From positions 1 through 64,000 of IMG/VR virus record IMGVR_UViG_3300021138_002231: 64,000 nucleotides of DNA; one strand, written 5' to 3'. The DNA is from a virus. The translations under genes and the position numbers were made by a program. A model generated the notes under the pieces. It saw nothing but the letters and a program-made list of their open reading frames with translations. It was not told the origin of the DNA and did no database searches. Positions 1,712-33,257 of the stretch are shown piece by piece (position 1 is the first letter of the stretch; each line of letters opens with the position of its first letter).

Positions 1712-2635
1712 TCAATCTTTATCTCCAAAAACTCGTTTATAATAATATTCAAAAGCCTTTACACTTTCATCATCTTCCATAACTAAAAAGATATTCTTCA
1801 AATGAAAAATATCTGTTGTTCGTAAGAACGTTTTAATTGTAGCTAATTGAATTGAAGCAGTATAATGTATATCATACGTACCACAATCACAAGGAATCAT
1901 TACAATAGATTGTGCCCCTTGTGCCTCAGCCCACAATAAACCTTTTCTTACAGATGATCTTATATCATTTTCATTAACTAAACGACTTGCACCTGCAACA
2001 ACTGCATGCAAAATTCTATTTGATTTAACAACACTTTCTGGTCCCCCATTGCTGGTGGGATAAACATGCCCCATTTGAATAGGCCGAGGGATTTTGTCAC
2101 ATTCTTCTTGAACCATGCCACGAGACATTCGATTTAGTTGAGCATCATCTATGGTCAAAAGATTATTTGTAGGATAAAATAATACATCAGATTTAACTAA
2201 ATAAGGATTATCTAATTTGTGAATAGATATTTTTACTGGATATTCTTCTTCCTCTTCTTCTGAATCATCACTTTCTTCTTCCTCTTCTTCTGAATCATCA
2301 CTTTCTTCAGATTCTTCAGATTCTTCTTCAAAAGGATCATAATTATCGGCTGCACCAATAACAACAACTTCTTCCTCTTCCTCTTCTTCTGAATCTAAAT
2401 CCCAAAGTAAAGGAATAATCGAACAATTATCGTATTCGCCTTTACAATCAATATCCCAAAGATCGGTATCGTAATCTTCGTTATTTTTGACTAAAGCCGT
2501 TGCAACAGGAGCGGAGAGTGTTTGTTTGATAAAGCATCCTTGATTACCCTTAATGTCTGTAACATAGAATGGGCAATCGCATGCTTGATCAATAGATTGC
2601 TTTAAAATTTTTTTTAACATAATAGCCGTAGCCAT
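1712..2635 (-). CDS. Macro-domain-like protein with acidic linker
   Basis: This 307-residue product has three parts. Residues 1-80 are Cys-containing (CDCPFYV, GCFI, DCKGEYDNC) and may bind a metal. Residues about 82-133 are almost entirely Glu/Asp/Ser, encoded by degenerate TCTTCC/TCTTCA repeats. Residues about 135-300 resemble a macro domain: a strand with DVLFYPTNNLL, then ILHAVVAG, SSVRKGLLWAEAQG, SIVMIPCDCGT, and a final helix with KAFEYY. Macro domains bind or hydrolyse ADP-ribose derivatives, so a role in NAD or ADP-ribosylation signalling is possible. ATG at 2635 follows GG very closely; Met6 is an alternative start. A GTATAAATA box lies just upstream. Confidence 0.55.
   Translation of the reverse strand: MATAIMLKKILKQSIDQACDCPFYVTDIKGNQGCFIKQTLSAPVATALVKNNEDYDTDLWDIDCKGEYDNCSIIPLLWDLDSEEEEEEEVVVIGAADNYDPFEEESEESEESDDSEEEEEESDDSEEEEEEYPVKISIHKLDNPYLVKSDVLFYPTNNLLTIDDAQLNRMSRGMVQEECDKIPRPIQMGHVYPTSNGGPESVVKSNRILHAVVAGASRLVNENDIRSSVRKGLLWAEAQGAQSIVMIPCDCGTYDIHYTASIQLATIKTFLRTTDIFHLKNIFLVMEDDESVKAFEYYYKRVFGDKD
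2240..2400. repeat. Degenerate TCTTCC/TCTTCTGAATCATCACT repeats
   Basis: Short repeats encode the Glu/Asp/Ser linker of the macro-domain protein. A unit containing CTTCTTCTGAATCATCACTT occurs twice in tandem at about 2247-2305, and a related copy lies near 2370-2395. The tract is prone to length change by slippage. Confidence 0.75.
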
Positions 2636-2655
2636 CCTTTTTATTTTTGATGGTT

Positions 2656-2663
2656 TATTTATA
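2656..2663 (-). promoter_or_regulatory. TATAAATA box upstream of the macro-domain gene
   Basis: Minus-strand CTGTATAAATAAAC matches the T4-type late promoter octamer and the GTATAAAWA family of this window. It overlaps the stop codon of the upstream gene and lies 20 bases from the next ATG. Confidence 0.4.
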
Positions 2664-3222
2664 CAGAATTCAATTTTGCAATGTATTTTGCATAATTATC
2701 AGCCAAATTTTGTATATCTGAAGGCAATTCAGAAGTCTCAGAATTAGGCAACATCGATGGAAGTTTATTGAAAGTTTGCAGATATTCACGCGCTTGTTCA
2801 GATAGTTTTTTAGCAACTTCTGGCTTTATGCCTGGATAATGATCCAGAAATTCAATATACGAATTTAATCTTGCTGATTGTTGATTATACCAATTTTGAA
2901 CTTCTGGAGTTCTCTCCCATTCATACAATTCTTTTGCATAATCATCAGCGCTCATACCAGGTTGAAATGCTGGAACTTCTAATGGATTTTCTGGCCCATT
3001 GGCACTTAAAAAAGAAGAGTATAAAGGATTGACAGTTAAACCCATACCCTGCTGTCCTAAAGCAGTATCTTTTAATATTCCTGGAGATGTTAAATATGAG
3101 CTTCCAGGAATAGCATTTAATGCGGTTAAATCAGTCGCTAATTTAACAAATTTATCAATTGTATCTGCAATCTCATATTTACCCGCTTGATCATAAGCCT
3201 GAGCAATTTTAATATGGTTCAT
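2659..3222 (-). CDS. Unknown protein with N-terminal DQAG-KYEIAD motif
   Basis: The family of this 187-residue product is not recognised. Its first 30 residues, with IAQAYDQAGKYEIAD followed by IDKFVKLA, match a motif repeated in other proteins of the window (starts of the 7230-8009 product, end of the 17765-18466 product). The remainder is Pro/Asn-rich, then helical. The gene starts with an SD GGAG and overlaps the preceding gene by 14 bases, so it belongs to the same transcript as the 3209-4396 gene. A virion or virion-associated role is inferred only from the shared motif. Confidence 0.5.
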   Translation of the reverse strand: MNHIKIAQAYDQAGKYEIADTIDKFVKLATDLTALNAIPGSSYLTSPGILKDTALGQQGMGLTVNPLYSSFLSANGPENPLEVPAFQPGMSADDYAKELYEWERTPEVQNWYNQQSARLNSYIEFLDHYPGIKPEVAKKLSEQAREYLQTFNKLPSMLPNSETSELPSDIQNLADNYAKYIAKLNSV

Positions 3223-4396
3223 TATTTACTCCACTTTGATTTTCTTGTTCTAAATGATTAAACACTTGATTTGAACTTGTTATAATTGAATTAAGATAAT
3301 CTGTTATAGCTTTTTCCAGCCCAACCGTATTATTTGTGCCATATTCTTGCATCAATGGCAAAATACCTTGATGAAATAAATCATCAATGGAATATGGTAT
3401 ATTTTCCTCATTTAGAATTTGAACTTCTGCTAATTTTTGGAATGAATTTTCATTTGATCCTCTAATTACACTTGGGTCCGTAGTCCCAATTCCCGCAGGT
3501 AAATTGGAAGTATCACTGCTAGTATCTGGAATTTGATAATTTCCTGGTAAACCGCCCAAATTTCCAAAATTACCTTGATTTGTAATGCCGCCATGTGATG
3601 CTGAAGGCATCGTTACGCCAGAAGAATTAGATTGCATTTTTGAGTTAATTTGTTGAAATTGTTGCTCTGTGCCCTCATTAATATTTGAATGAGTAAATGC
3701 TTGAAACCCTTTTAATGGTAAATAAGCAGATGGGATTAACACTGCTGCTCTAGCTAGAAAAACTACTGTTGATAGAGTTCTTTTACTGGCTGCTCCTCTA
3801 ATAACATCTTGTGAAAGTTCTTTCAAAGCTTGATTGAAACTATCAATGCCATCTTGCGTAAGAACGACTCCAACGTTGCCCTGTAAAAACTTTTCTATAC
3901 TCATTTCTTCAATAGCTTTAGTATTACTATTTGCAACTTTAAGTGTTGCCTGTTTAAATTTTTCTACAGCTTGTGATTTATCACGATCAAGAAAACCCAT
4001 GCCTTTAATTAAGGCATTTTTTAAAAAGCTGGCTCGACCACCTGGCGTTAGTTGTGTTAAGTCTGTTAATATTTTATTTAAATCTGTGTCTGAAGGATTA
4101 GAACCCAATTGTAAATATCTTCTTCGCGCCAATATGCCCTGCATGCCAGGTAAATTGTTTAATATATTTTCAACTTCTTGTCTTTTTGTATTTTTTAATT
4201 CAGAGGGCAAAGCTCCAGGATTTAAAGATATGGGCATATTATTCATGGGAATTTTTTTAAATCGCTTAAAAAAACCGCCAAATTGTGCTTCTGAAATTCG
4301 AGGGCCTTCATATCCATCAAAATAAAAATCATTAGAATTATCACTTGAAGCAATTCTATTAAACTTATTATCAACTCTTTCGAACTTATCAGACAT
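3209..4396 (-). CDS. Unknown protein, possibly virion-associated
   Basis: A TTG-initiated reading would begin at 4408, but the ATG at 4396 (MSDKFERV) has GGAGAAG at SD distance and is preferred, giving 395 residues. The family is not recognised. A KFNRIASS motif at about residues 11-18 echoes KFIRIAKS and RFIRVAQ in two other proteins of the window. Residues about 200-225 are hydrophobic (VVFLARAAVLIPSAYLPL) and may be a membrane-active segment. The central part (about 255-310) is rich in Ser, Asn and Gly. The gene overlaps the next gene downstream. Confidence 0.5.
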   Translation of the reverse strand: MSDKFERVDNKFNRIASSDNSNDFYFDGYEGPRISEAQFGGFFKRFKKIPMNNMPISLNPGALPSELKNTKRQEVENILNNLPGMQGILARRRYLQLGSNPSDTDLNKILTDLTQLTPGGRASFLKNALIKGMGFLDRDKSQAVEKFKQATLKVANSNTKAIEEMSIEKFLQGNVGVVLTQDGIDSFNQALKELSQDVIRGAASKRTLSTVVFLARAAVLIPSAYLPLKGFQAFTHSNINEGTEQQFQQINSKMQSNSSGVTMPSASHGGITNQGNFGNLGGLPGNYQIPDTSSDTSNLPAGIGTTDPSVIRGSNENSFQKLAEVQILNEENIPYSIDDLFHQGILPLMQEYGTNNTVGLEKAITDYLNSIITSSNQVFNHLEQENQSGVNNEPY

Positions 4397-4424
4397 AATC
4401 TTCTCCAATATGCATATATTCTAT

Positions 4425-5834
4425 TTACAATTCCACCACACCTTTGTATTCAATGTCGATTTGTTTTTTAAGAGATTCATATTTATATTCGCTTGGATTG
4501 TTTATGCATTCTTTTGTTATAAGGATTCTTCCTTTATTCTCATTGATCATGCCACCCAATAATTCAAAAGCAGCTTTGGATACTGATTTGCTGATAATTG
4601 TATTTAATGCTCTAGCTCCCGTTGACATTGAATATGCTTTGTTTACAACTTCATCTATGAAATCATCATCAAATTCCAAGAGATATCCACATTCTGCAAA
4701 TAATTTAATTTCTCTTTGCATCGGAGAATGATTCAATTCTAAAAGACACATTCTTAACTCTTCTTTTGTTAATGGAGCTAAAGGCGCAATAACAGGAATT
4801 CTTCCTACAAGTTCAGTGGAAAGTCCATATTGTATCAAAGCTTGAATTAAAGTTTCAGTATCAGCCTTCGACAATATTTCATAAGTTCTTATAGCCTTTT
4901 CAAATTCTTGATTAGAATTATTTTGATTAAATCCTATTTTTGGGCCTGAATATCCGCTAATTTTAGCAACAATTTCTGACAATCCTGGGAATGCTCCACC
5001 TAAAAAGAAAAGAATTTTACTTGTATCAACCTGAATAAATGTTCCCTGGGGTTCTCCTAAAAGTTGTCCTGGCACTTTAACCTTTTTACCTTCAATAAGT
5101 TTTAATAATGATGATTGTGTTGCTATATTTAAAGCTTCTCCTCGATTACCTTGATTATAGTGTGTAGACATTTTATCAATTTCATCAATAAAAATTATAC
5201 CCTTTTCTGCTAAAGCAACATTCCCATTTGCTTTTAAAAGCAAATCTGAAATCATAGTATCAGCATCTGCTCCTTGATATCCAGTTGGGCTATAGCTTGT
5301 GGCGTCTACTGCAACAAATGGCAATTTTAAAGACTTGGCTATTGTATTGGCTATTAATGTTTTACCACTACCACTAGGCCCCAATAACAAAATTCCATGA
5401 CTATCTGATGCATTAGTATTTGATTTTCTTTTCAGGCTTCTTACGTGCTTAAAAACACTTAAACTAATTTGTGATTTAGCCAAATCTTGCCCTATAACAT
5501 TTGATTCTAAAGCATCGTATAATTCTCTTGGTGTTTGTTCTTTAATCTCTAAAATTTGATTTTTTTCTACTTGCCTTCTTGCATTTGGAACCAAAGTATA
5601 AAGCTTTTCTTTTAATTCATTGGCTGTTAAGTTTTCATCCATTTCACTAATGTAATTTACTAGTTTAGATGGTAATTCCATTTGACCTATCATAAGGCCA
5701 GTATAAAAAGCACGATGATGTTTTTGGCAAAGATAAAATTTTTTTCCTTGCAATACAACTGTTTTTCCTTGATCATTTGCTGCTTCTGAACAAATTAAAC
5801 AAACCTTATCATCTAAAGAATATATGTTAATCAT
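4425..5834 (-). CDS. clpX: ClpX-like AAA+ unfoldase
   Basis: The 469-residue product has ClpX organisation. An N-terminal zinc-binding domain has C12, C15, C36 and H39. The AAA+ module has a Walker A GPSGSGKT (152-159), a pore loop GYQG (185-188, ClpX GYVG), a Walker B FIDEID (215-220), the arginine-finger region GRIP near R345 and sensor II GAR (406-408). The IGF tripeptide at 300-302 lies where ClpX proteins carry the loop that docks on ClpP. By family knowledge it would unfold proteins and could feed host ClpP. C36-H39 replaces the usual CxxC second half. It lies downstream of the DUF1289 gene, separated by a strong hairpin and a GTATAAAAA box. Confidence 0.85.
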   Translation of the reverse strand: MINIYSLDDKVCLICSEAANDQGKTVVLQGKKFYLCQKHHRAFYTGLMIGQMELPSKLVNYISEMDENLTANELKEKLYTLVPNARRQVEKNQILEIKEQTPRELYDALESNVIGQDLAKSQISLSVFKHVRSLKRKSNTNASDSHGILLLGPSGSGKTLIANTIAKSLKLPFVAVDATSYSPTGYQGADADTMISDLLLKANGNVALAEKGIIFIDEIDKMSTHYNQGNRGEALNIATQSSLLKLIEGKKVKVPGQLLGEPQGTFIQVDTSKILFFLGGAFPGLSEIVAKISGYSGPKIGFNQNNSNQEFEKAIRTYEILSKADTETLIQALIQYGLSTELVGRIPVIAPLAPLTKEELRMCLLELNHSPMQREIKLFAECGYLLEFDDDFIDEVVNKAYSMSTGARALNTIISKSVSKAAFELLGGMINENKGRILITKECINNPSEYKYESLKKQIDIEYKGVVEL

Positions 5835-5847
5835 GTGTTTACCAAAT

Positions 5848-5880
5848 ATAAAAAGTCCAATATAATATTGGACTTTTTAT
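5848..5880 (-). terminator. Perfect 15-bp hairpin terminator
   Basis: ATAAAAAGTCCAATA and its complement flank a 3-base loop and end with ACTTTTTAT on one strand. It separates the DUF1289 gene from the clpX-like gene and overlaps a promoter-like box. Confidence 0.75.
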
Positions 5881-5881
5881 A
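5874..5881 (-). promoter_or_regulatory. GTATAAAAA box upstream of clpX-like gene
   Basis: Minus-strand CTGTATAAAAAGTCC lies in the promoter-proximal arm of the hairpin, 40 bases before the clpX-like ATG. It is a member of the GTATAAAWA family. Confidence 0.4.
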
Positions 5882-5888
5882 CAGTGGC

Positions 5889-6053
5889 TTATTTGGGATT
5901 TGAGTTTTCAATTTCTAATTGCTTCATTATTTGTAATTTTTCTTCATAAGAATAATTTTTCCAGTTCTTTATTTGGATAATTGTTCTTTTGCATCCTAAA
6001 CAAGTTTTATTATCATCTAATTGACATATTTTAATACATGGAGTTATATTCAT
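5889..6053 (-). CDS. DUF1289-family miniprotein
   Basis: This short ORF encodes 54 residues beginning MNITPCIKICQLDDNKTC. The spacing PC-IKIC-...-TCLGCKRT, followed by a Trp at 31 and EEKL, matches the DUF1289 family, whose four cysteines (here C6, C10, C18, C21) suggest metal or Fe-S binding. The family's function is not established. The start lies inside the end of the upstream gene (23-base overlap), suggesting translational coupling, and a strong hairpin follows the stop. Confidence 0.7.
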   Translation of the reverse strand: MNITPCIKICQLDDNKTCLGCKRTIIQIKNWKNYSYEEKLQIMKQLEIENSNPK

Positions 6054-7230
6054 TATCTGGTCCTTGAGTTAATGATTCAGCTTGTTGCAATGTTTGCATT
6101 AAATTATTTAATGCACTTTGATATTCAGGTGATGTTGCTTCCTGTGCCATATTTTGTTTCACAAAATCATTTGTAATTGATGATCCAGAAACTTCTTTAG
6201 ATTGCAATGCCGCATTCACATTATTTTGTGTTTGATCAATAGATTGTAAACTATAGTTTATTAACTTTTGTACTATTTCATAATATTTTTGAATATTAGG
6301 TTCATTATTTGTTAATTGCAATAGCATTTTAAATTGTTCATTAATATCATTGTAATTATCTTCAATGTTAGTTTTTTCGCCTCGCAAGCTATTCCCAAAA
6401 TCAAGTAATTTATCAGTTGCTATGCCTGCAAGCAAACCCACTCCACCACTTGCTAGTCCTGATGCGAGGCCACCGCCCCCGCTTGACAATAATTCGGGGG
6501 CTAATTTGGGCATTAAATCTTCAGATATTTGAGGAGCCGCTTGCGAAAGACCTTTAAGACCCACATTATATAATTGTTCTGCTCCTCTATTGGACAAATC
6601 ACCTTGTATTAAAGCTCCACCCATCCCTTTTGCAGTATCTGAAAAATCAAAATCATTATGATTATCCATTTTAGGCGATTTTGCTATTCTTATAAATTTA
6701 TTATTTTTATTAGCTAACAATTTGCTCGTACCAGGAGACAGAGATGCGTCTGTGGGTTCAGAAACATCATTAGATGCATCGGTTGATGGAGATGATTCTT
6801 TCTTTTGTATATTTTCATCTACGTATTGTTTAATTTCAGTGCCAATTCCTGTAAGATATTTTGCTAGAGTAGGATTGTGTTTATCCATTATTCCAGCGAT
6901 GGTATTTAATCTTTCTTGAATGTCTCCAGCTTGCCAAGAAGCTTTATCTTCGTTAGAACGTGTAGCATACCATAAATCTTTTAATCCATGTCCCACTAAA
7001 CCACTTAAACCGCCAATTATGGCCCCAGGAACCGCACCAGCCCCACCAGCGGGTAGAGTTGCTATAGCCCCGCCAGCGGCACCCGCTGCTGCATCTGTCA
7101 AAACATCATGTCCATATTCTCCAAGATTAAATTCGCCCATTGTTCCTGCTTCTCGGGTCATTTCACGAATTTCTTGCATAGTAGCAGAACGCACAGGTTG
7201 AATGCCTTGTTTTAAATATCTTTTTTCCAT
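6031..7230 (-). CDS. Gly/Ala-rich unknown protein, possible virion component
   Basis: The family of this 399-residue product is not recognised. Residues about 46-83 form a glycine-zipper-like stretch (AAAGAAGGAIATLPAGGAGA), and residues about 250-270 form a second one (GGGGLASGLASGGVGLLAG); both resemble membrane-inserting segments. Between them lies a Ser/Thr/Asp-rich linker and the motif NKFIRIAKSPK at about residues 176-186, shared in form with two other proteins here. The C-terminal third is Gln/Asn-rich helix. The ATG overlaps the stop of the upstream gene (TAATG). A membrane-penetrating or internal virion protein is one possibility. Confidence 0.5.
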   Translation of the reverse strand: MEKRYLKQGIQPVRSATMQEIREMTREAGTMGEFNLGEYGHDVLTDAAAGAAGGAIATLPAGGAGAVPGAIIGGLSGLVGHGLKDLWYATRSNEDKASWQAGDIQERLNTIAGIMDKHNPTLAKYLTGIGTEIKQYVDENIQKKESSPSTDASNDVSEPTDASLSPGTSKLLANKNNKFIRIAKSPKMDNHNDFDFSDTAKGMGGALIQGDLSNRGAEQLYNVGLKGLSQAAPQISEDLMPKLAPELLSSGGGGLASGLASGGVGLLAGIATDKLLDFGNSLRGEKTNIEDNYNDINEQFKMLLQLTNNEPNIQKYYEIVQKLINYSLQSIDQTQNNVNAALQSKEVSGSSITNDFVKQNMAQEATSPEYQSALNNLMQTLQQAESLTQGPDNEYNSMY

Positions 7231-8079: not shown

Positions 8080-9135
8080 TTAAACCTTTTTCGAATTCTT
8101 CAAAAGTTCACACAAGGTTGTGTTGCGGTGAATTTCTTTATCATTTTCGACAGCAACTTCAATTGCATTTTGAGTGCCAGCAACAATGCAAATCTTTTTA
8201 GCGCGAGTTAATCCAGTATAAAACAGATTTCTTTGTAACATTTTATACTGTGAATTATGCAACACTAAAACAACAGCGGGATATTCTGCTCCCTGAGAAT
8301 TATGACAAACAAATCCATTGCAAACAAAAGAATGTATATCTTCTATTTCTAAATCATATGTTTGTTCTTCGCATAAAAAGTCAATATTTTTAATTTTATC
8401 ATAGTAATAATTATGATTCAAGGTTTTCGTTAGTGATGTTGGCACCTCCAAGTTATGATCGTTAAGAAAATTGATCATCTGATTTAAATGATGATAATTT
8501 AAATTCGCATTTCTTCTTTGTTTTTTAATAATATTTATTTGATTTTGCAATGAAGAATATTTAGGATTATTAAATCCTTGACCTTTTTTGCCCCTGAAAC
8601 TAGGAAAAGCTTTAATGAAATCTTCATATACAAATTTCATAGGAATAATATCATTGTTTGTTTTACCATTGGTGTTATTTAATAAAGATAATTTATGTTT
8701 TTTGTTTTTATTAAATAAATTAAGGTGTTTTTTAATAATCTGTAAACTTGGTCCTTGAATATGAACACAATATGCATTCGGATAGTCTTTTCGAATGGAA
8801 GAAATAACTCCAGCATTCAATAAAAGCATTTGCATATTCTGAGCAAATTGTTCAGATTTAATTACTATTCTTATTCCATGATTATCTATACATCCATCAG
8901 CATCTATCATTCCCGAAATAAAAGACATTTTATTTTTTAATGATTCATTATAAATCACATCAGGAATTGTTTTGGAATCACACTTTACATATTGCAAACC
9001 TAAACCCAATAAATATTCACGTATTTTTTTTGAAAAAACACATGCTCTTATATTGAGATCATCATTTTTATTTTTAGGATATATTTTAATATCATAATCA
9101 AAATTTGTTTTAATAATGTCCTGTATTTTTTTCAA
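8080..9135 (-). CDS. recD2: RecD2 helicase C-part plus intein C-half
   Basis: This 351-residue reading begins at a TTG with no good SD and is out of frame with the preceding ORF. Residues 1-279 are the second half of an intein: a DOD endonuclease motif FISGMIDADG (72-81), block F around DIHSFVCNGFV and the end VCHN (276-279). Residues 280-351 are the C-extein of RecD2, SQGAEYP then NLFYTGLTRAKK (303-314), helicase motifs V/VI with the arginine of the active site. Removing one A from the A7 run at 9126-9132 joins it to the N-part. It is therefore best read as the second piece of one frameshifted gene; a separately translated split-intein half is the alternative. Confidence 0.8.
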   Translation of the reverse strand: MKKIQDIIKTNFDYDIKIYPKNKNDDLNIRACVFSKKIREYLLGLGLQYVKCDSKTIPDVIYNESLKNKMSFISGMIDADGCIDNHGIRIVIKSEQFAQNMQMLLLNAGVISSIRKDYPNAYCVHIQGPSLQIIKKHLNLFNKNKKHKLSLLNNTNGKTNNDIIPMKFVYEDFIKAFPSFRGKKGQGFNNPKYSSLQNQINIIKKQRRNANLNYHHLNQMINFLNDHNLEVPTSLTKTLNHNYYYDKIKNIDFLCEEQTYDLEIEDIHSFVCNGFVCHNSQGAEYPAVVLVLHNSQYKMLQRNLFYTGLTRAKKICIVAGTQNAIEVAVENDKEIHRNTTLCELLKNSKKV

Positions 9136-9556
9136 AACATTCTATTGCATTTACATGTCCAGTCCACTCTATACGATAATCATTATCAAATGTATTATAA
9201 TTTCCGTCTCCAACAGTGTAACCCAATAACCAAGCCATGTCGCTTGATAAAATGTCAGTATTGTCTATTATTGTCCTATCAATAATGATATAATCAGATT
9301 CTTTAATATCTTTTATTTTTTTAAATAATTCTTCATTAACAATAGTATCGTATACAAGTATCGGGTGTTTATCAGTTGCATCAATTTTATATCCATTTTT
9401 TGTAGTTAATCTGTAAATTTCTTGAACTCCAGATTCAATATTATCAACGACTTTCATAAAAAGATTACCGCCTACAGCTACAGAATCGCCAATAACAATA
9501 TCTTGAATATTTTTATAACCTTGCTCTGTTAGTACAAGTTCTCCTTTTTTAATGCA
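8299..9556 (-). other. Intein in RecD2 with one-base frameshift
   Basis: The element runs from C660 of the N-part to N279 of the C-part, with S as the first C-extein residue, so both splice-site residues (Cys1, His-Asn, Ser+1) are present. It is 1258 bp, that is 419 codons plus one base. The extra base lies in an A7 run (9126-9132) within the homing-endonuclease region, between the two DOD motifs LLGYTVGDG and ISGMIDADG. Deleting one A gives a continuous endonuclease reading (ECFEKIQDIIK). Confidence 0.85.
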
Positions 9557-11533
9557 TTTATGTACTGTTACACAAAAGCAATGTTGTAATTCATCCCATT
9601 CTGAGGGTTCATAAGATACAGATTCAGCTATATCTGGATATTTAACATACACCATCGTATCATCTCCATCTTTGATGATGTTTTCAATAATACCCATATC
9701 ACCGTTGAAAACTCCACCAGCTTCTTCAGCCTTGCCATAGTTATTACGTATTTGCATAACCCTATCGCCAACTCTAAAAATTCTATTTCCAAGTTGGATT
9801 TCAGGTTTAGATGGACTTTCTGGATTTAAAACTGATTGTAATCTAGGATTTAAATCTTCTACACCTAATCCGCGTGAACGCATAGGTGTAAGCACTTGTA
9901 TTTCTTGAGACTTATATCCAGCATCAGGAAGAGATTTTGACACAAGTGTAATAATTTTTTGAATCAAGTCTTCTTGATCTTCAGATGAGACTCTCATGCA
10001 ATTGCGCCCTTTACTTTCTCTTGGAGTAGGTAATTCTGGAATATTTCCATGCAAAATATCATGCGCAACAGTAACGATTGTTGATCCTGCCTGTTGACGA
10101 AAAATTTGTGTTAATCTAGTTACGGCACAAGCATTTGACTTAATGATATCTCGTAATACATTTCCTGGTCCAACAGAAGGCAACTGATCTACATCTCCGA
10201 TAAAAATCAATCGCATATGTTTTTCCATAGCAAACAATAAACTTTGCAACAATGAAATATCTAACATAGATGCTTCATCTACAATTACACATTGAGTTCG
10301 TAAAGGATTTTCAGCATTATAATAAAAGCTACCATTCTGAAATTGTAATAGTCTATGAATAGTTGATGCACTATTCCCTGTTGCTTCCGACAATCGTTTC
10401 GCCGCTCTACCAGTGGGAGCGCATAATACATAACTGATATCATTGAACTCTAAAAGATTACAAAGAGTTTTAGTGACAAAACTCTTACCAACACCAGGAC
10501 CACCAGTAATAACAGAAACGCGATTATTCATGGTATTAAATAGCGCTAATTCCTGTTCATGAGCCAAAGGCTTATCAGGATCATAAATGCCCCTATATTT
10601 AAGTTCTACAATAACATCGTTTAATGTCTTGTAATATTGCTTAGACGGATAATTAATCATTTGTGTTAGAATATTACTGACATTTTGTTCTGTATGCCAC
10701 ATACCAGATAAATAGATTTTATTATATTCTTTCACTAAAATTGATGTATCTACAAGTCTTTGAATGGCTTTAAGCGCAGATTCAACATTAATGTCTGATT
10801 TTAAAAGTTTTACTGTTTCTGTCGCTAAAGTGTCTTTAATGACATAACAATGCCCTGACATTTTAGACTGTTCCATACAATATTGAACTGCGGCATCGGC
10901 GCGATCTGGTGAATTACGTGGAACTCCTGTTTTAATAGCTATTTCATCGGCTGTATGGAAGCCGATACCAGGAATTTCTGTAATACAATATGGGTTCTTT
11001 TCAATTAATGATATTGAGAGTTCTCCAAAGTATTTTTGAATTTTATTCGCAATATTAGGAGGCATGCCCATAGACATAAGTTGTGTAACAATCAAATGAA
11101 TATCTCTAGATTCTTTCCATTGATTAATTAAATCATTTGCCTTAGCTGGTAAAATACCTGGGACTTCTAAAATTTTATTAGGGTCACTATCTAGAATTGA
11201 AATTGTATCCATGCCAAAATGATTTACAATTGATCTTGCAGTTGTTACACCAACTTTTTTAAAAGCTTTTCCAGAAAGATATTTCACTAATGAATCTGCA
11301 CTAGTAAATCCATCTTCATAAATTTCTTCGACATTAATCTGTTCTCCCCATTTGGGATGTACAGATTGAGTTCCTCTTGCTTTGACTCTCATGCCTTCCG
11401 TAAATGCAGGCATATCTCCAATCAAGACATAATCTTTTCTTTTATCACGCACGGTCATTCTTGTCCATCCTGAATCTTTACGAATCATTCTGACAATTTC
11501 GCCAGTAACTTCTATAACATTTGACATAATCAT
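9110..11533 (-). CDS. recD2: RecD2-type helicase N-part plus intein N-half
   Basis: Residues 1-659 match RecD2/TraA helicases (SF1B, 5-prime to 3-prime). An N-terminal OB-like region is followed by helix-hairpin-helix segments (VPGILPAKA, IPGIGFHTADEIA), Walker A GGPGVGKS (344-351), Walker B VDEASM (418-423), GDVDQLPSVGPG (447-458) and FRQ (478-480). The sequence reads TVHK then C660, the first residue of an intein, exactly where RecD2 has TVHKSQG. Block-B TDKH (720-723) and the DOD motif LLGYTVGDG (769-777) follow. The ORF stops after a frameshift. A TAGAAT box abuts the first ATG, so Met3 (11527) is the likelier start. Confidence 0.85.
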   Translation of the reverse strand: MIMSNVIEVTGEIVRMIRKDSGWTRMTVRDKRKDYVLIGDMPAFTEGMRVKARGTQSVHPKWGEQINVEEIYEDGFTSADSLVKYLSGKAFKKVGVTTARSIVNHFGMDTISILDSDPNKILEVPGILPAKANDLINQWKESRDIHLIVTQLMSMGMPPNIANKIQKYFGELSISLIEKNPYCITEIPGIGFHTADEIAIKTGVPRNSPDRADAAVQYCMEQSKMSGHCYVIKDTLATETVKLLKSDINVESALKAIQRLVDTSILVKEYNKIYLSGMWHTEQNVSNILTQMINYPSKQYYKTLNDVIVELKYRGIYDPDKPLAHEQELALFNTMNNRVSVITGGPGVGKSFVTKTLCNLLEFNDISYVLCAPTGRAAKRLSEATGNSASTIHRLLQFQNGSFYYNAENPLRTQCVIVDEASMLDISLLQSLLFAMEKHMRLIFIGDVDQLPSVGPGNVLRDIIKSNACAVTRLTQIFRQQAGSTIVTVAHDILHGNIPELPTPRESKGRNCMRVSSEDQEDLIQKIITLVSKSLPDAGYKSQEIQVLTPMRSRGLGVEDLNPRLQSVLNPESPSKPEIQLGNRIFRVGDRVMQIRNNYGKAEEAGGVFNGDMGIIENIIKDGDDTMVYVKYPDIAESVSYEPSEWDELQHCFCVTVHKCIKKGELVLTEQGYKNIQDIVIGDSVAVGGNLFMKVVDNIESGVQEIYRLTTKNGYKIDATDKHPILVYDTIVNEELFKKIKDIKESDYIIIDRTIIDNTDILSSDMAWLLGYTVGDGNYNTFDNDYRIEWTGHVNAIECFEKNTGHY

Positions 11534-25619: not shown

Positions 25620-26837
25620 ATGAAATCTTTCAAAACTGAATTAATTCTCAATAATAAAGAAATTACAAAATGTAAAAAACATGCTGGCGTAGCCAGACAT
25701 GCTTGGAATTGGGCATTGGAACAAACACAAAAAGCATTAGATGACAAAGAATTATTGCCTTCAGCAATCATTTTACACAAACGTCTTGTGGCAGAAGTAA
25801 AGAAAAATAATCCTTGGTATTATGAAGTGAGTAAATACACTCCTCAACAAGCATTAAGAAATCTTGAAGTATCTTGGAAAAGATGTTTTAAAAAATTATC
25901 TAAAAAACCAAAATTTAAAAAGAAAGAACAAAATGATTCTTTTTATCTTGAAGGTAAAATTCAGATAAAAGGAAATAAAATTAAACTACCAAATCTTGGA
26001 TGGATAAAAACACATGAAGTTCTACCTGAGATTCTTAAAGGAGAATCTGGTACAGCAAATGTTACAATATCTGAAAGAGCAGGCAGATGGTTTATTAGTT
26101 ATAAAGTAAATCATAAACCTGAAATAACAGATAAAACACTAGATTGTGCAGGTATGGATTTAGGAATTAAAACATTAGCAACACTATCTGATGGAACGAC
26201 TTTTGAAAATCCTAAAGCATATAGAAAGAATAAAGCAAAGTTATCTAGAACACAGAGAAGTTTTTCAAGAAAGAAAAAAGGTTCTGCGAATGGAACTAAA
26301 CAAAAACAAAAACTACGAAAGATACATTATAGAATTGCGAACATTCGCAAAAACGCAATTCATAAGATAACATCTTATCTCACTAAGAATCACAGTGAGA
26401 TTGTGTTGGAAGACTTAAATGTATCTGGTATGATGAAAAACCATAAGTTGGCATCCGCAATCGCAGATTGCGGATTTCATGAATTTAGAAGACAATTAGA
26501 ATATAAATCTGAATGGCATGGATGTACATTAACATTTGTTGACAGATTCTTTCCAAGTAGTAAAATTTTCTCTAATTGTGGATGTAAAAAGGAACAACTA
26601 TCGCTTTCCGAGCGTATGTTTAATTGTTCAGATTGTGGTTTTCAGATTGATAGAGATTTAAATGCTGCTATTAATTTGAAAAAACAAATAAAATCCATAC
26701 CCGAAGCTCTCGGGGAATTAACGCCTGTGGAGATGAAAGCTCTGGTTGCTGGCAAAGCCAGCAACGAAACTATCGTCACAGAAGCAGGAATAAAATATCA
26801 GTTAAGAACAAATGTTCAGAATTGTGTAAGTTTTTAA
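25620..26837 (+). CDS. tnpB: TnpB RNA-guided nuclease
   Basis: This 405-residue protein has the TnpB layout: an N-terminal helical/beta region (HAWNWALEQTQ, NPWYYEVSKYTPQQALRNLE), then a split RuvC domain with D180 (GMDLGIKTLA), E264 (VLEDLNVSGM) and D344 (IDRDLNAAINL). The zinc finger deviates: C320, C322, C336 and C339 are present, while the usual first Cys (position 317) is Phe. TnpB proteins use an omega RNA overlapping the 3-prime end of the gene to guide DNA cleavage. A Shine-Dalgarno sequence is sequestered in a hairpin. Confidence 0.9.
   Translation: MKSFKTELILNNKEITKCKKHAGVARHAWNWALEQTQKALDDKELLPSAIILHKRLVAEVKKNNPWYYEVSKYTPQQALRNLEVSWKRCFKKLSKKPKFKKKEQNDSFYLEGKIQIKGNKIKLPNLGWIKTHEVLPEILKGESGTANVTISERAGRWFISYKVNHKPEITDKTLDCAGMDLGIKTLATLSDGTTFENPKAYRKNKAKLSRTQRSFSRKKKGSANGTKQKQKLRKIHYRIANIRKNAIHKITSYLTKNHSEIVLEDLNVSGMMKNHKLASAIADCGFHEFRRQLEYKSEWHGCTLTFVDRFFPSSKIFSNCGCKKEQLSLSERMFNCSDCGFQIDRDLNAAINLKKQIKSIPEALGELTPVEMKALVAGKASNETIVTEAGIKYQLRTNVQNCVSF
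26745..26765 (+). ncRNA. Possible omega-RNA stem in tnpB 3-prime end
   Basis: GTTGCTGGC/GCCAGCAAC form a perfect 9-bp stem with an AAA loop inside the last 35 codons of tnpB, where omega RNAs usually begin. Other stems, such as CCCGA/TCGGG at 26699-26713, lie just upstream. The full RNA extent is not determined. Confidence 0.35.
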
Positions 26838-31508: not shown

Positions 31509-33257
31509 TTATTCTGAATTTATAAGCGATTCCGCAATCAAACTCAATTGTTTACTAGCCATTTTAAGAATATCTTCTGTAGAAGTTACAAGTCCGCGTA
31601 ATAATTCAAGATTTTCATTTGTTTGTCCTTGCTCTAAAGACGGTAACAAATCTTCTAATTCGTAAATAAGTTCTTCTGTAAAATAATCTCTATTGTCTCT
31701 TAATAATTCTTCAACTTGAATTAATTGATCTCTAACTACACTTTGCAAGTTAGATGTAATTGTAAACAGAGCATCTTCTTCTTTGTTTTCTTCTGCTTCT
31801 TTAAGCATTCTTTGCACTTCTTCAGAGGATAATGAAGAATTTCCTGTTAAAGTAATCGATTTAGACAATCCTGTAATCTTATCAATCGCAGAGACTGAAA
31901 GTATACCATTTGCATCAACATCAAACGTGACTTCGATTTGTGGTGCTCCTCTTGGTGCTGGATCAACTTCAAGACTAAATTTACCCAAGAATTTATTATC
32001 TTTTGTTTGTGGCCTTTCGCCCTGATATACTTTAATTTCAACTAATTTTTGATTATCTTCTGCTGTGGAGTAAATATCTGAAAATGATGCTGGTACAGGA
32101 GTATTGCGTTCAATCATTTTCGTCATTACTCCGCCTGCTGTTTCAATTCCTAATGTTAGAGGACTTACATCAACAAGATAAATTTCTTTATCTGATTGTC
32201 CAGAAAGAACACTGGCCTGTATTGCTGCACCAATCGCAACAGCTTCGTCGGGATTAATGGATCGATTTGGCACTTTGCCTGTCCATAATTCTACAGATTC
32301 TGCAATTTTAGGAACTCTTGTACTTCCGCCAACAAATACGACTTCATCAATTTCAGAATAAGTAATTTTAGCATCAAGTATTGCTTGGTCTACGCATTTT
32401 TTAGCCTTTTCAATGAGTTCTTCTATTTCTTTTTCGAATTCTTGTCTGGTTACTGTAACTTTAAGATGTTTTGGCAGGCCATTTTCATGATAGAAATATG
32501 GTATATATACGTTACTGCTCTTGCTGGATGTTAGTTCTTTTTTAAGCTTTTCAGCGGCTTCTCTTAATCGAACTTTCATATTCTCATCTAATACGTCTTC
32601 TTGAATTTCTGCTTTAGAAAGAATGATTTTTTCTAGTTTTTGATCAAAATCATCTCCACCCAAAAAGGTATCTCCGCTTGTAGATTGAACTAAGAAATCC
32701 ATACCATCAAGTATTTTAAGGATTGTTACGTCAAATGTCCCGCCTCCCAAATCAAAGACAAGAACAGTTTCATCTTTATTTTTATCTAATCCATACGCTA
32801 AAGATGCGGCAGTAGGTTCGTTTATAATTCTAAGAACTTTTAATCCTGCTAATTCTCCAGCTATAGTTGTAGATTTACGTTGATCATTATTAAAGTATGC
32901 TGGAACCGTAATAACAACAGCTTCTACTGTATCATTAAGAAATGATTCTGCATCTTCTTTAAGTTTTTTAAGTATTTCAGATGATATTTCTTCTGGAGAA
33001 AATTCTTTATCATTAAGCATTAGTCGATCATTAGTTCCCATACGTCTTTTAATAGAACGTATTGTGGATGAGGGGTTCATTAATTCTTGATCAACTGCTG
33101 GTGCTCCAACAAGTTTTTCTTTATCTTGTGTGTATGCAAATACAGACGGAGTTGTTCTTCCTCCTTCACTACTAGGAATAACTTCAGGGATTCCTTTATC
33201 ATTTACATATGCAATACAAGAATTTGTAGTTCCAAGATCAATTCCAATTACTTTCAT
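31509..33257 (-). CDS. dnaK: Hsp70 chaperone DnaK
   Basis: This 582-residue Hsp70 contains IGIDLGTTNS (4-13), the NRSIKRRMGT region, FDLGGGTFDV near residue 168-177 and VFVGGSTRVP near 310-319, the nucleotide-binding motifs. The substrate-binding domain (LTLGIETAGG, ERNTPVP, FDVDANGILSVSA) is present. It is about 55 residues shorter than E. coli DnaK, mainly in the C-terminal lid and tail, and lacks the EEVD-like end. Two J-proteins are encoded nearby, but no GrpE is seen, so host GrpE may serve. The next gene, rnhB, begins 17 bases after its stop. Confidence 0.93.
   Translation of the reverse strand: MKVIGIDLGTTNSCIAYVNDKGIPEVIPSSEGGRTTPSVFAYTQDKEKLVGAPAVDQELMNPSSTIRSIKRRMGTNDRLMLNDKEFSPEEISSEILKKLKEDAESFLNDTVEAVVITVPAYFNNDQRKSTTIAGELAGLKVLRIINEPTAASLAYGLDKNKDETVLVFDLGGGTFDVTILKILDGMDFLVQSTSGDTFLGGDDFDQKLEKIILSKAEIQEDVLDENMKVRLREAAEKLKKELTSSKSSNVYIPYFYHENGLPKHLKVTVTRQEFEKEIEELIEKAKKCVDQAILDAKITYSEIDEVVFVGGSTRVPKIAESVELWTGKVPNRSINPDEAVAIGAAIQASVLSGQSDKEIYLVDVSPLTLGIETAGGVMTKMIERNTPVPASFSDIYSTAEDNQKLVEIKVYQGERPQTKDNKFLGKFSLEVDPAPRGAPQIEVTFDVDANGILSVSAIDKITGLSKSITLTGNSSLSSEEVQRMLKEAEENKEEDALFTITSNLQSVVRDQLIQVEELLRDNRDYFTEELIYELEDLLPSLEQGQTNENLELLRGLVTSTEDILKMASKQLSLIAESLINSE

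What the first reader, a model, noticed from the sequence alone, without database searches (positions are those of the whole stretch)
8299..9556. Frameshifted or split intein in the RecD2 helicase active site
Seen: RecD2 is interrupted exactly at TVHK/SQG (helicase motif V) by an intein with Cys1, block-B TxxH, two DOD motifs and terminal HN followed by Ser. The two halves are in different frames, overlapping by 26 bases, with an A7 run where removal of one A restores a single 419-codon intein. Known: inteins favour conserved active-site positions; homing-endonuclease regions are where natural split inteins are divided. Inference: either a one-base error, recent decay that inactivates the helicase, slippage at A7 that makes a fraction of full-length protein, or two separately translated halves that trans-splice.
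Basis: partly seen in the sequence, partly recalled or inferred. Interest (0 to 1): 0.7.

Follow-up and report, generated by a model that had tools for sequence, protein, structure and literature searches.

The report
Frame-broken intein in phage RecD2 helicase
A bacteriophage helicase gene carries an ordinary self-splicing protein insert (intein) at a site that other phages and bacteria also use; here its reading frame is broken by a one-base length change in a run of As, most likely a sequencing slip or a recent mutation rather than a new kind of split intein.

Summary
On the minus strand a RecD2 helicase gene is interrupted after TVHK (helicase motif V) by an intein with all splicing and LAGLIDADG-endonuclease signatures. 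The two halves lie in different frames, overlap by 26 bases, and meet at an A7 run (9126-9132). The record is an 83.9-kb fragment of an uncultured huge-phage relative.

Ten RecD2 inteins at the identical T-x-H-K|S-Q-G site (seven in bacterial contigs, three viral), plus three in related phage helicases, are all one uninterrupted frame. A profile built from such inteins aligns end to end with the read-through intein. Codon usage switches frame exactly at the A7, and nothing else in the gene is damaged.

A natural split is unlikely: the break lies inside the endonuclease domain, and the C-half has only an unsupported TTG start. Programmed recoding is unlikely: a +1 (or -2) shift is needed, no stimulatory signal is seen, and E. 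coli RNA polymerase showed no rescue by base loss on the A runs tested (PMC6260861). I read it as a normal cis-splicing intein carrying one accidental homopolymer indel. Whether that is an assembly error or a recent loss-of-function mutation cannot be decided without reads.

The parts
9557..11533 (-). RecD2 N-extein, 659 codons (OB/HHH/ATPase/SH3 domains), ending QHCFCVTVHK
   Evidence: NCBIfam TIGR01448 E=1.2e-185 over residues 19-659; Pfam HHH_RecD2 and SH3_13
8299..9556 (-). Bifunctional (splicing plus LAGLIDADG) intein, 1258 bases, out of frame by one base
   Evidence: TIGR01445 at G000:9353-9556, PF14528 at 8767-8931
9126..9132 (-). A7 run where the reading frame changes
   Evidence: coding signal changes frame here
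9365..9376 (-). Block B TDKH (TxxH), intein residues 61-64
   Evidence: read from the translation, aligned with homologues
9200..9229 (-). First LAGLIDADG (DOD) motif LLGYTVGDGN, catalytic Asp kept
8893..8922 (-). Second LAGLIDADG (DOD) motif FISGMIDADG, catalytic Asp kept
8299..8358 (-). Blocks F and G, YDLEIEDIHSFVCNGFVCHN, with +1 Ser following
8080..8298 (-). RecD2 C-extein, 72 codons (rest of motif V and motif VI region) plus stop
   Evidence: TIGR01448 positions 644-712, UvrD_C_2 E=2.5e-12
9133..9135 (-). TTG, the only start codon of the second frame at the break; no Shine-Dalgarno

Best explanation
This is an ordinary cis-splicing intein with a LAGLIDADG homing endonuclease, sitting at a recurrent insertion site in helicase motif V of RecD2 (T-V-H-K|S-Q-G) in an uncultured phage. 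In the intact form (seen in homologues, inferred here) the 1150-codon precursor would splice itself into a 731-residue helicase, and the endonuclease would copy the intein into empty recD2 alleles. In this sequence a single accidental one-base length change in an A run inside the endonuclease domain truncates the product before helicase motifs V-VI. The change is either an assembly or sequencing error (about 45%) or a real and recent loss-of-function mutation (about 40%). It is not a functional split or a programmed shift.
For: Ten RecD2 inteins at the identical site (loci L029, L032, L038, L039, L041, L043, L044 in bacterial contigs; L045, L046, L047 viral) plus three in other SF1 helicases (L010, L023, L095) are single uninterrupted frames. 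Among about 60 intein-bearing loci scanned, only this one and one other (L097) are broken. The read-through intein aligns end to end with the in-frame profile at 284 bits, 11 more than the two halves summed. All splicing and endonuclease residues are intact and codon usage stays gene-like in both halves, so there is one lesion only. A/T runs of 7 or more are strongly avoided in this contig's coding DNA (about 24 seen, 65 +/- 5 expected by synonymous shuffling), as expected of indel-prone sites. No other gene break was seen in 83.9 kb, about 97% of it in ORFs, and 13 genes compared with related phages align unbroken.
Against: The other 23 A/T runs of 7 or more sit in intact frames, two of them inside this intein, so the assembly is not generally bad at homopolymers. 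No close relative or reads exist here to show the unshifted form of this very gene.
Confidence: 0.85

Rival explanations
1. Transcriptional or ribosomal slippage at the A7 run restores the frame in a fraction of products, so that some full-length precursor splices to active RecD2.
For: There is an A7 run at the exact junction, and both halves keep gene-like codon usage and all catalytic residues. Rescue at longer A runs is known, e.g. A11 in Citrobacter tssM by base insertion (PMC4256274).
Against: One base must be lost or two gained; the -1 heptamer present shifts the wrong way. E. coli RNAP gave no rescue by base loss on the poly(A) runs tested and no detectable slippage below eight As (PMC6260861). 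There is no stimulatory RNA structure (z = -0.57) and no stop or SD-like stimulator at the site. The other 23 long A/T runs in the contig need no rescue.
Confidence: 0.07
2. A natural split intein: the two ORFs are translated separately and the halves trans-splice into RecD2.
For: Each half carries complete splicing blocks (N: A, B; C: F, G). The second ORF has a TTG start just upstream of the break and overlaps the first, so translational coupling is conceivable.
Against: The TTG has no Shine-Dalgarno, and no later start before the second DOD motif has more than a 4-base SD match. The TTG lies only two codons after an in-frame TAG, as a chance start would (sequence). [quoted passage not shown] All same-site homologues are contiguous.
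Confidence: 0.04
3. Long-standing decay: the intein and recD2 are a pseudogene in this phage lineage.
For: A frame break inactivates both helicase and intein as written. Most related huge phages searched lack a RecD2 like this one, so it may be dispensable.
Against: There is only one lesion in 1150 codons, with codon usage and all catalytic residues intact. An old pseudogene should hold more stops and frameshifts.
Confidence: 0.04

Closest known systems
RecD2 inteins at helicase motif V in Armatimonadota, Opitutaceae and Gemmataceae MAGs and in viral contigs (L029, L032, L038, L039, L041, L043-L047)
   Same: Identical insertion point, Cys1, HN|S junction; most have the same LAGLIDADG layout (L032 and L046 are shorter); 23-30% identity for the full-length ones, closest L043
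   Different: All are one open frame; this one is broken by one base
Certrevirus (Pectobacterium phage CB7/phiTE) helicase intein, PHROG phrog_30356
   Same: Same motif-V site (TGHK|C...HN|CQG), two DOD motifs
   Different: Host protein is a different SF1 helicase; in frame; +1 residue Cys
Natural split inteins (DnaE, gp41-1 type)
   Same: Splicing blocks divided over two ORFs
   Different: Those split at the endonuclease insertion site and lack the endonuclease domain; here the endonuclease is present and is itself cut
Citrobacter rodentium tssM1 poly-A transcriptional frameshifting (PMC4256274)
   Same: A run of A at a frame break in a conserved gene
   Different: A11, rescued by base insertion and shown experimentally; here A7, needing a base loss or a double insertion

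Membership tests
Class 1 intein with LAGLIDADG endonuclease | N-terminal Cys, TxxH block B, C-terminal HN followed by Ser/Thr/Cys | tested here: met
Class 1 intein with LAGLIDADG endonuclease | Two DOD motifs with acidic residues | tested here: met
   LLGYTVGDGN and FISGMIDADG; PF14528 over cut-off
Class 1 intein with LAGLIDADG endonuclease | In-frame insertion in the host gene | tested here: not met
   One base out of frame at A7 in this sequence; met in all same-site homologues. It is therefore filed as a frame-broken copy of such an intein, not as an intact member
Class 1 intein with LAGLIDADG endonuclease | Actual protein splicing | not testable with these tools
   needs expression
RecD2 helicase | RecD2 domain order and motif match over both exteins | tested here: met
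   TIGR01448 618.7 bits for the N part (cut-off 500) plus C-terminal match 644-712
Natural split intein | Split at the endonuclease insertion site, endonuclease absent | tested here: not met
   Break inside the endonuclease domain between the two DOD motifs
Natural split intein | C-half has its own translation start | tested here: inconclusive
   TTG without Shine-Dalgarno
Programmed frameshift or slippage site | Slippery sequence in the right direction plus stimulator or long enough run | tested here: not met
   A7, +1/-2 needed, no structure; RNAP data in PMC6260861

The most novel reading that the evidence does not exclude
A phage RecD2 whose activity is rationed by rare slippage at an A7 run inside its intein, or whose intein is a first-generation split intein still carrying its endonuclease, divided between the DOD motifs and trans-splicing from two overlapping ORFs.
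Probability: 0.06. Interest if true: 0.65.

Novelty: new member of a known kind. Interest (0 to 1): 0.2.

Why it matters
It adds one phage member to a recurrent intein site in helicase motif V shared by RecD2 and other SF1 helicases across phages and bacteria, which fits helicase-to-helicase spread of inteins. If the frame break were functional it would show an intermediate between a full intein and a split intein; the evidence does not favour that.

Tried and rejected
Close relatives, to read A6 or A7 in other copies: protein pattern scans of viral contigs with both halves found none; a DNA scan across the run allowing 4-10 bases found none; megablast in phages and plasmids found none. These collections may leave out very near records. 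Natural split and programmed shift were tested by start sites, RNA fold, run length and direction and found unsupported. General bad assembly was rejected: other long homopolymers and neighbouring genes are in frame. Pattern hits L012, L030, L031, L033-L037, L040 and L042 were chance matches. A RecD2 in related huge phages was sought and mostly absent; LR745208 has one with an intein at another site, VIDE|C. Structure prediction was not run because it could not bear on A6 versus A7.

Full report
What is there. The window belongs to an 83,935-base virus record. On the minus strand, ORF 9110..11533 (807 aa) and ORF 8080..9135 (351 aa) overlap by 26 bases. The first matches NCBIfam helicase_RecD2 over residues 19-659 (618.7 bits) and intein_Nterm from residue 660. 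The second matches the last part of RecD2 (model positions 644-712), intein_Cterm and LAGLIDADG_3. The intein runs 8299-9556: Cys1 after TVHK, TDKH, LLGYTVGDGN, FISGMIDADG, CHN|SQG. It reads as 419 codons if one base of the A7 run (9126-9132) is disregarded, leaving exteins of 659 and 72 residues.

What organism. The DnaK-like protein at 31509-33257 has 44-57% identity over most of its length to proteins of uncultured phages of 484-735 kb and of IMG/VR contigs L014-L016. Thirteen contig genes align to L014-L016. The record also carries gyrase A and B, PhoH and a ClpX-like ATPase. It is best read as a fragment of a huge phage; the host is unknown.

Relatives at the same site. A pattern for the junction H-N-S-Q-G-x-E-[FY] found RecD2 genes interrupted at exactly T-x-H-K|S-Q-G in seven bacterial contigs (L029, L032, L038, L039, L041, L043, L044) and three viral ones (L045, L046, L047). 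Inteins at the equivalent position also occur in other SF1 helicases: L010 (human gut phage contig), L023 (Pectobacterium phage CB7) and L095. All are single open frames. The read-through intein aligns end to end with them; the best is L043, 30% identity over 419 residues, E = 1e-68.

The break. A profile made only from in-frame homologues matches frame 0 at positions 1-153 (98 bits) and frame 1 at positions 176-443 (175 bits), and the read-through over 1-443 (284 bits). Codon-usage scores favour frame 0 down to about 9145 and frame 1 from about 9115. The break is thus a single base-length change at the A7, between the two DOD motifs. No splicing or endonuclease residue is lost. The intein is richer in A+T than its host gene (26% G+C against 34.5% and 35.6% for the exteins and 32.4% for the contig), as a mobile insert may be.

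Is it an error? The contig's coding DNA holds about 24 A/T runs of 7 or more, against 65 +/- 5 in synonymous shuffles, so such runs are avoided. The others sit in open frames, including an A7 and an A8 within this same intein. No other broken gene was seen. A contrast is L097, a viral contig with a terminase intein that breaks in several places along with its extein, which looks like poor sequence. So the present contig is good overall, and one homopolymer indel is compatible both with an isolated consensus error and with a real mutation in the sequenced phage. No reads or close relatives were available.

Could it work as it stands? Restoring the frame needs +1 (or -2). The classical -1 heptamer A AAA AAT is present, but it leads into the third frame. 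Reporter tests showed no detectable E. coli RNA polymerase slippage below seven Ts or eight As and no rescue by deletion on the poly(A) runs tested (PMC6260861). The proven bacterial rescue at tssM uses A11 and inserts bases (PMC4256274). A phage with its own slippage-prone RNA polymerase would be less constrained (T7 RNA polymerase slips on shorter runs, same paper); whether this phage has one is unknown because only a fragment is held. The RNA around the site is not structured beyond chance. For trans-splicing, the C-half would have to start at a TTG without a Shine-Dalgarno, and the break would lie inside an endonuclease domain rather than at the canonical insertion site where splits are usual (PMC7090010). 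Inteins split artificially within an endonuclease domain can, from my own knowledge, trans-splice, so this is improbable rather than impossible.

Verdict. Shown: the intein, its site, its recurrence, the single frame break and its location. Inferred: the intact ancestor spliced in cis, and the break is accidental. I give 85% to an ordinary cis intein with an accidental indel (about 45% error, 40% real recent mutation), 7% to slippage, 4% to trans-splicing and 4% to old decay; the split between error and mutation is a judgement, not a measurement. Interest is low; it becomes interesting only if reads confirm A7 in several populations.

Noticed in passing
L032 (JAPLCP010000113.1), ORF 2170-6196: An Armatimonadetes RecD2 carries two inteins in one gene, one after the Walker A GGPGCGK and one in motif V.
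   Followed up: partly
L025 (LR745208.1, 485-kb phage): This RecD2 carries a mini-intein at a third site, VIDE|C (Walker B). LR745208.1 also has further inteins in helicase-like genes (L024).
   Followed up: partly
L028 (LR756508.1, 484-kb phage): One long ORF with portal-like sequence appears to contain several mini-inteins in tandem.
   Followed up: no
L097 (IMGVR_UViG_3300005346_000147) 3219-4718: A terminase intein and its extein are broken by several frame changes, probably sequence errors.
   Followed up: partly
window 40455-65783: Three consecutive giant ORFs of 2785, 3278 and 2342 aa (the last runs past the window's end); the second has SWM_repeat and PA14 domains.
   Followed up: no
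window 25620-26837: A transposase gene (phrog_506) within the phage record.
   Followed up: no
whole record: A/T homopolymers of 7 or more are about 2.7-fold rarer in coding DNA than synonymous shuffling predicts.
   Followed up: yes
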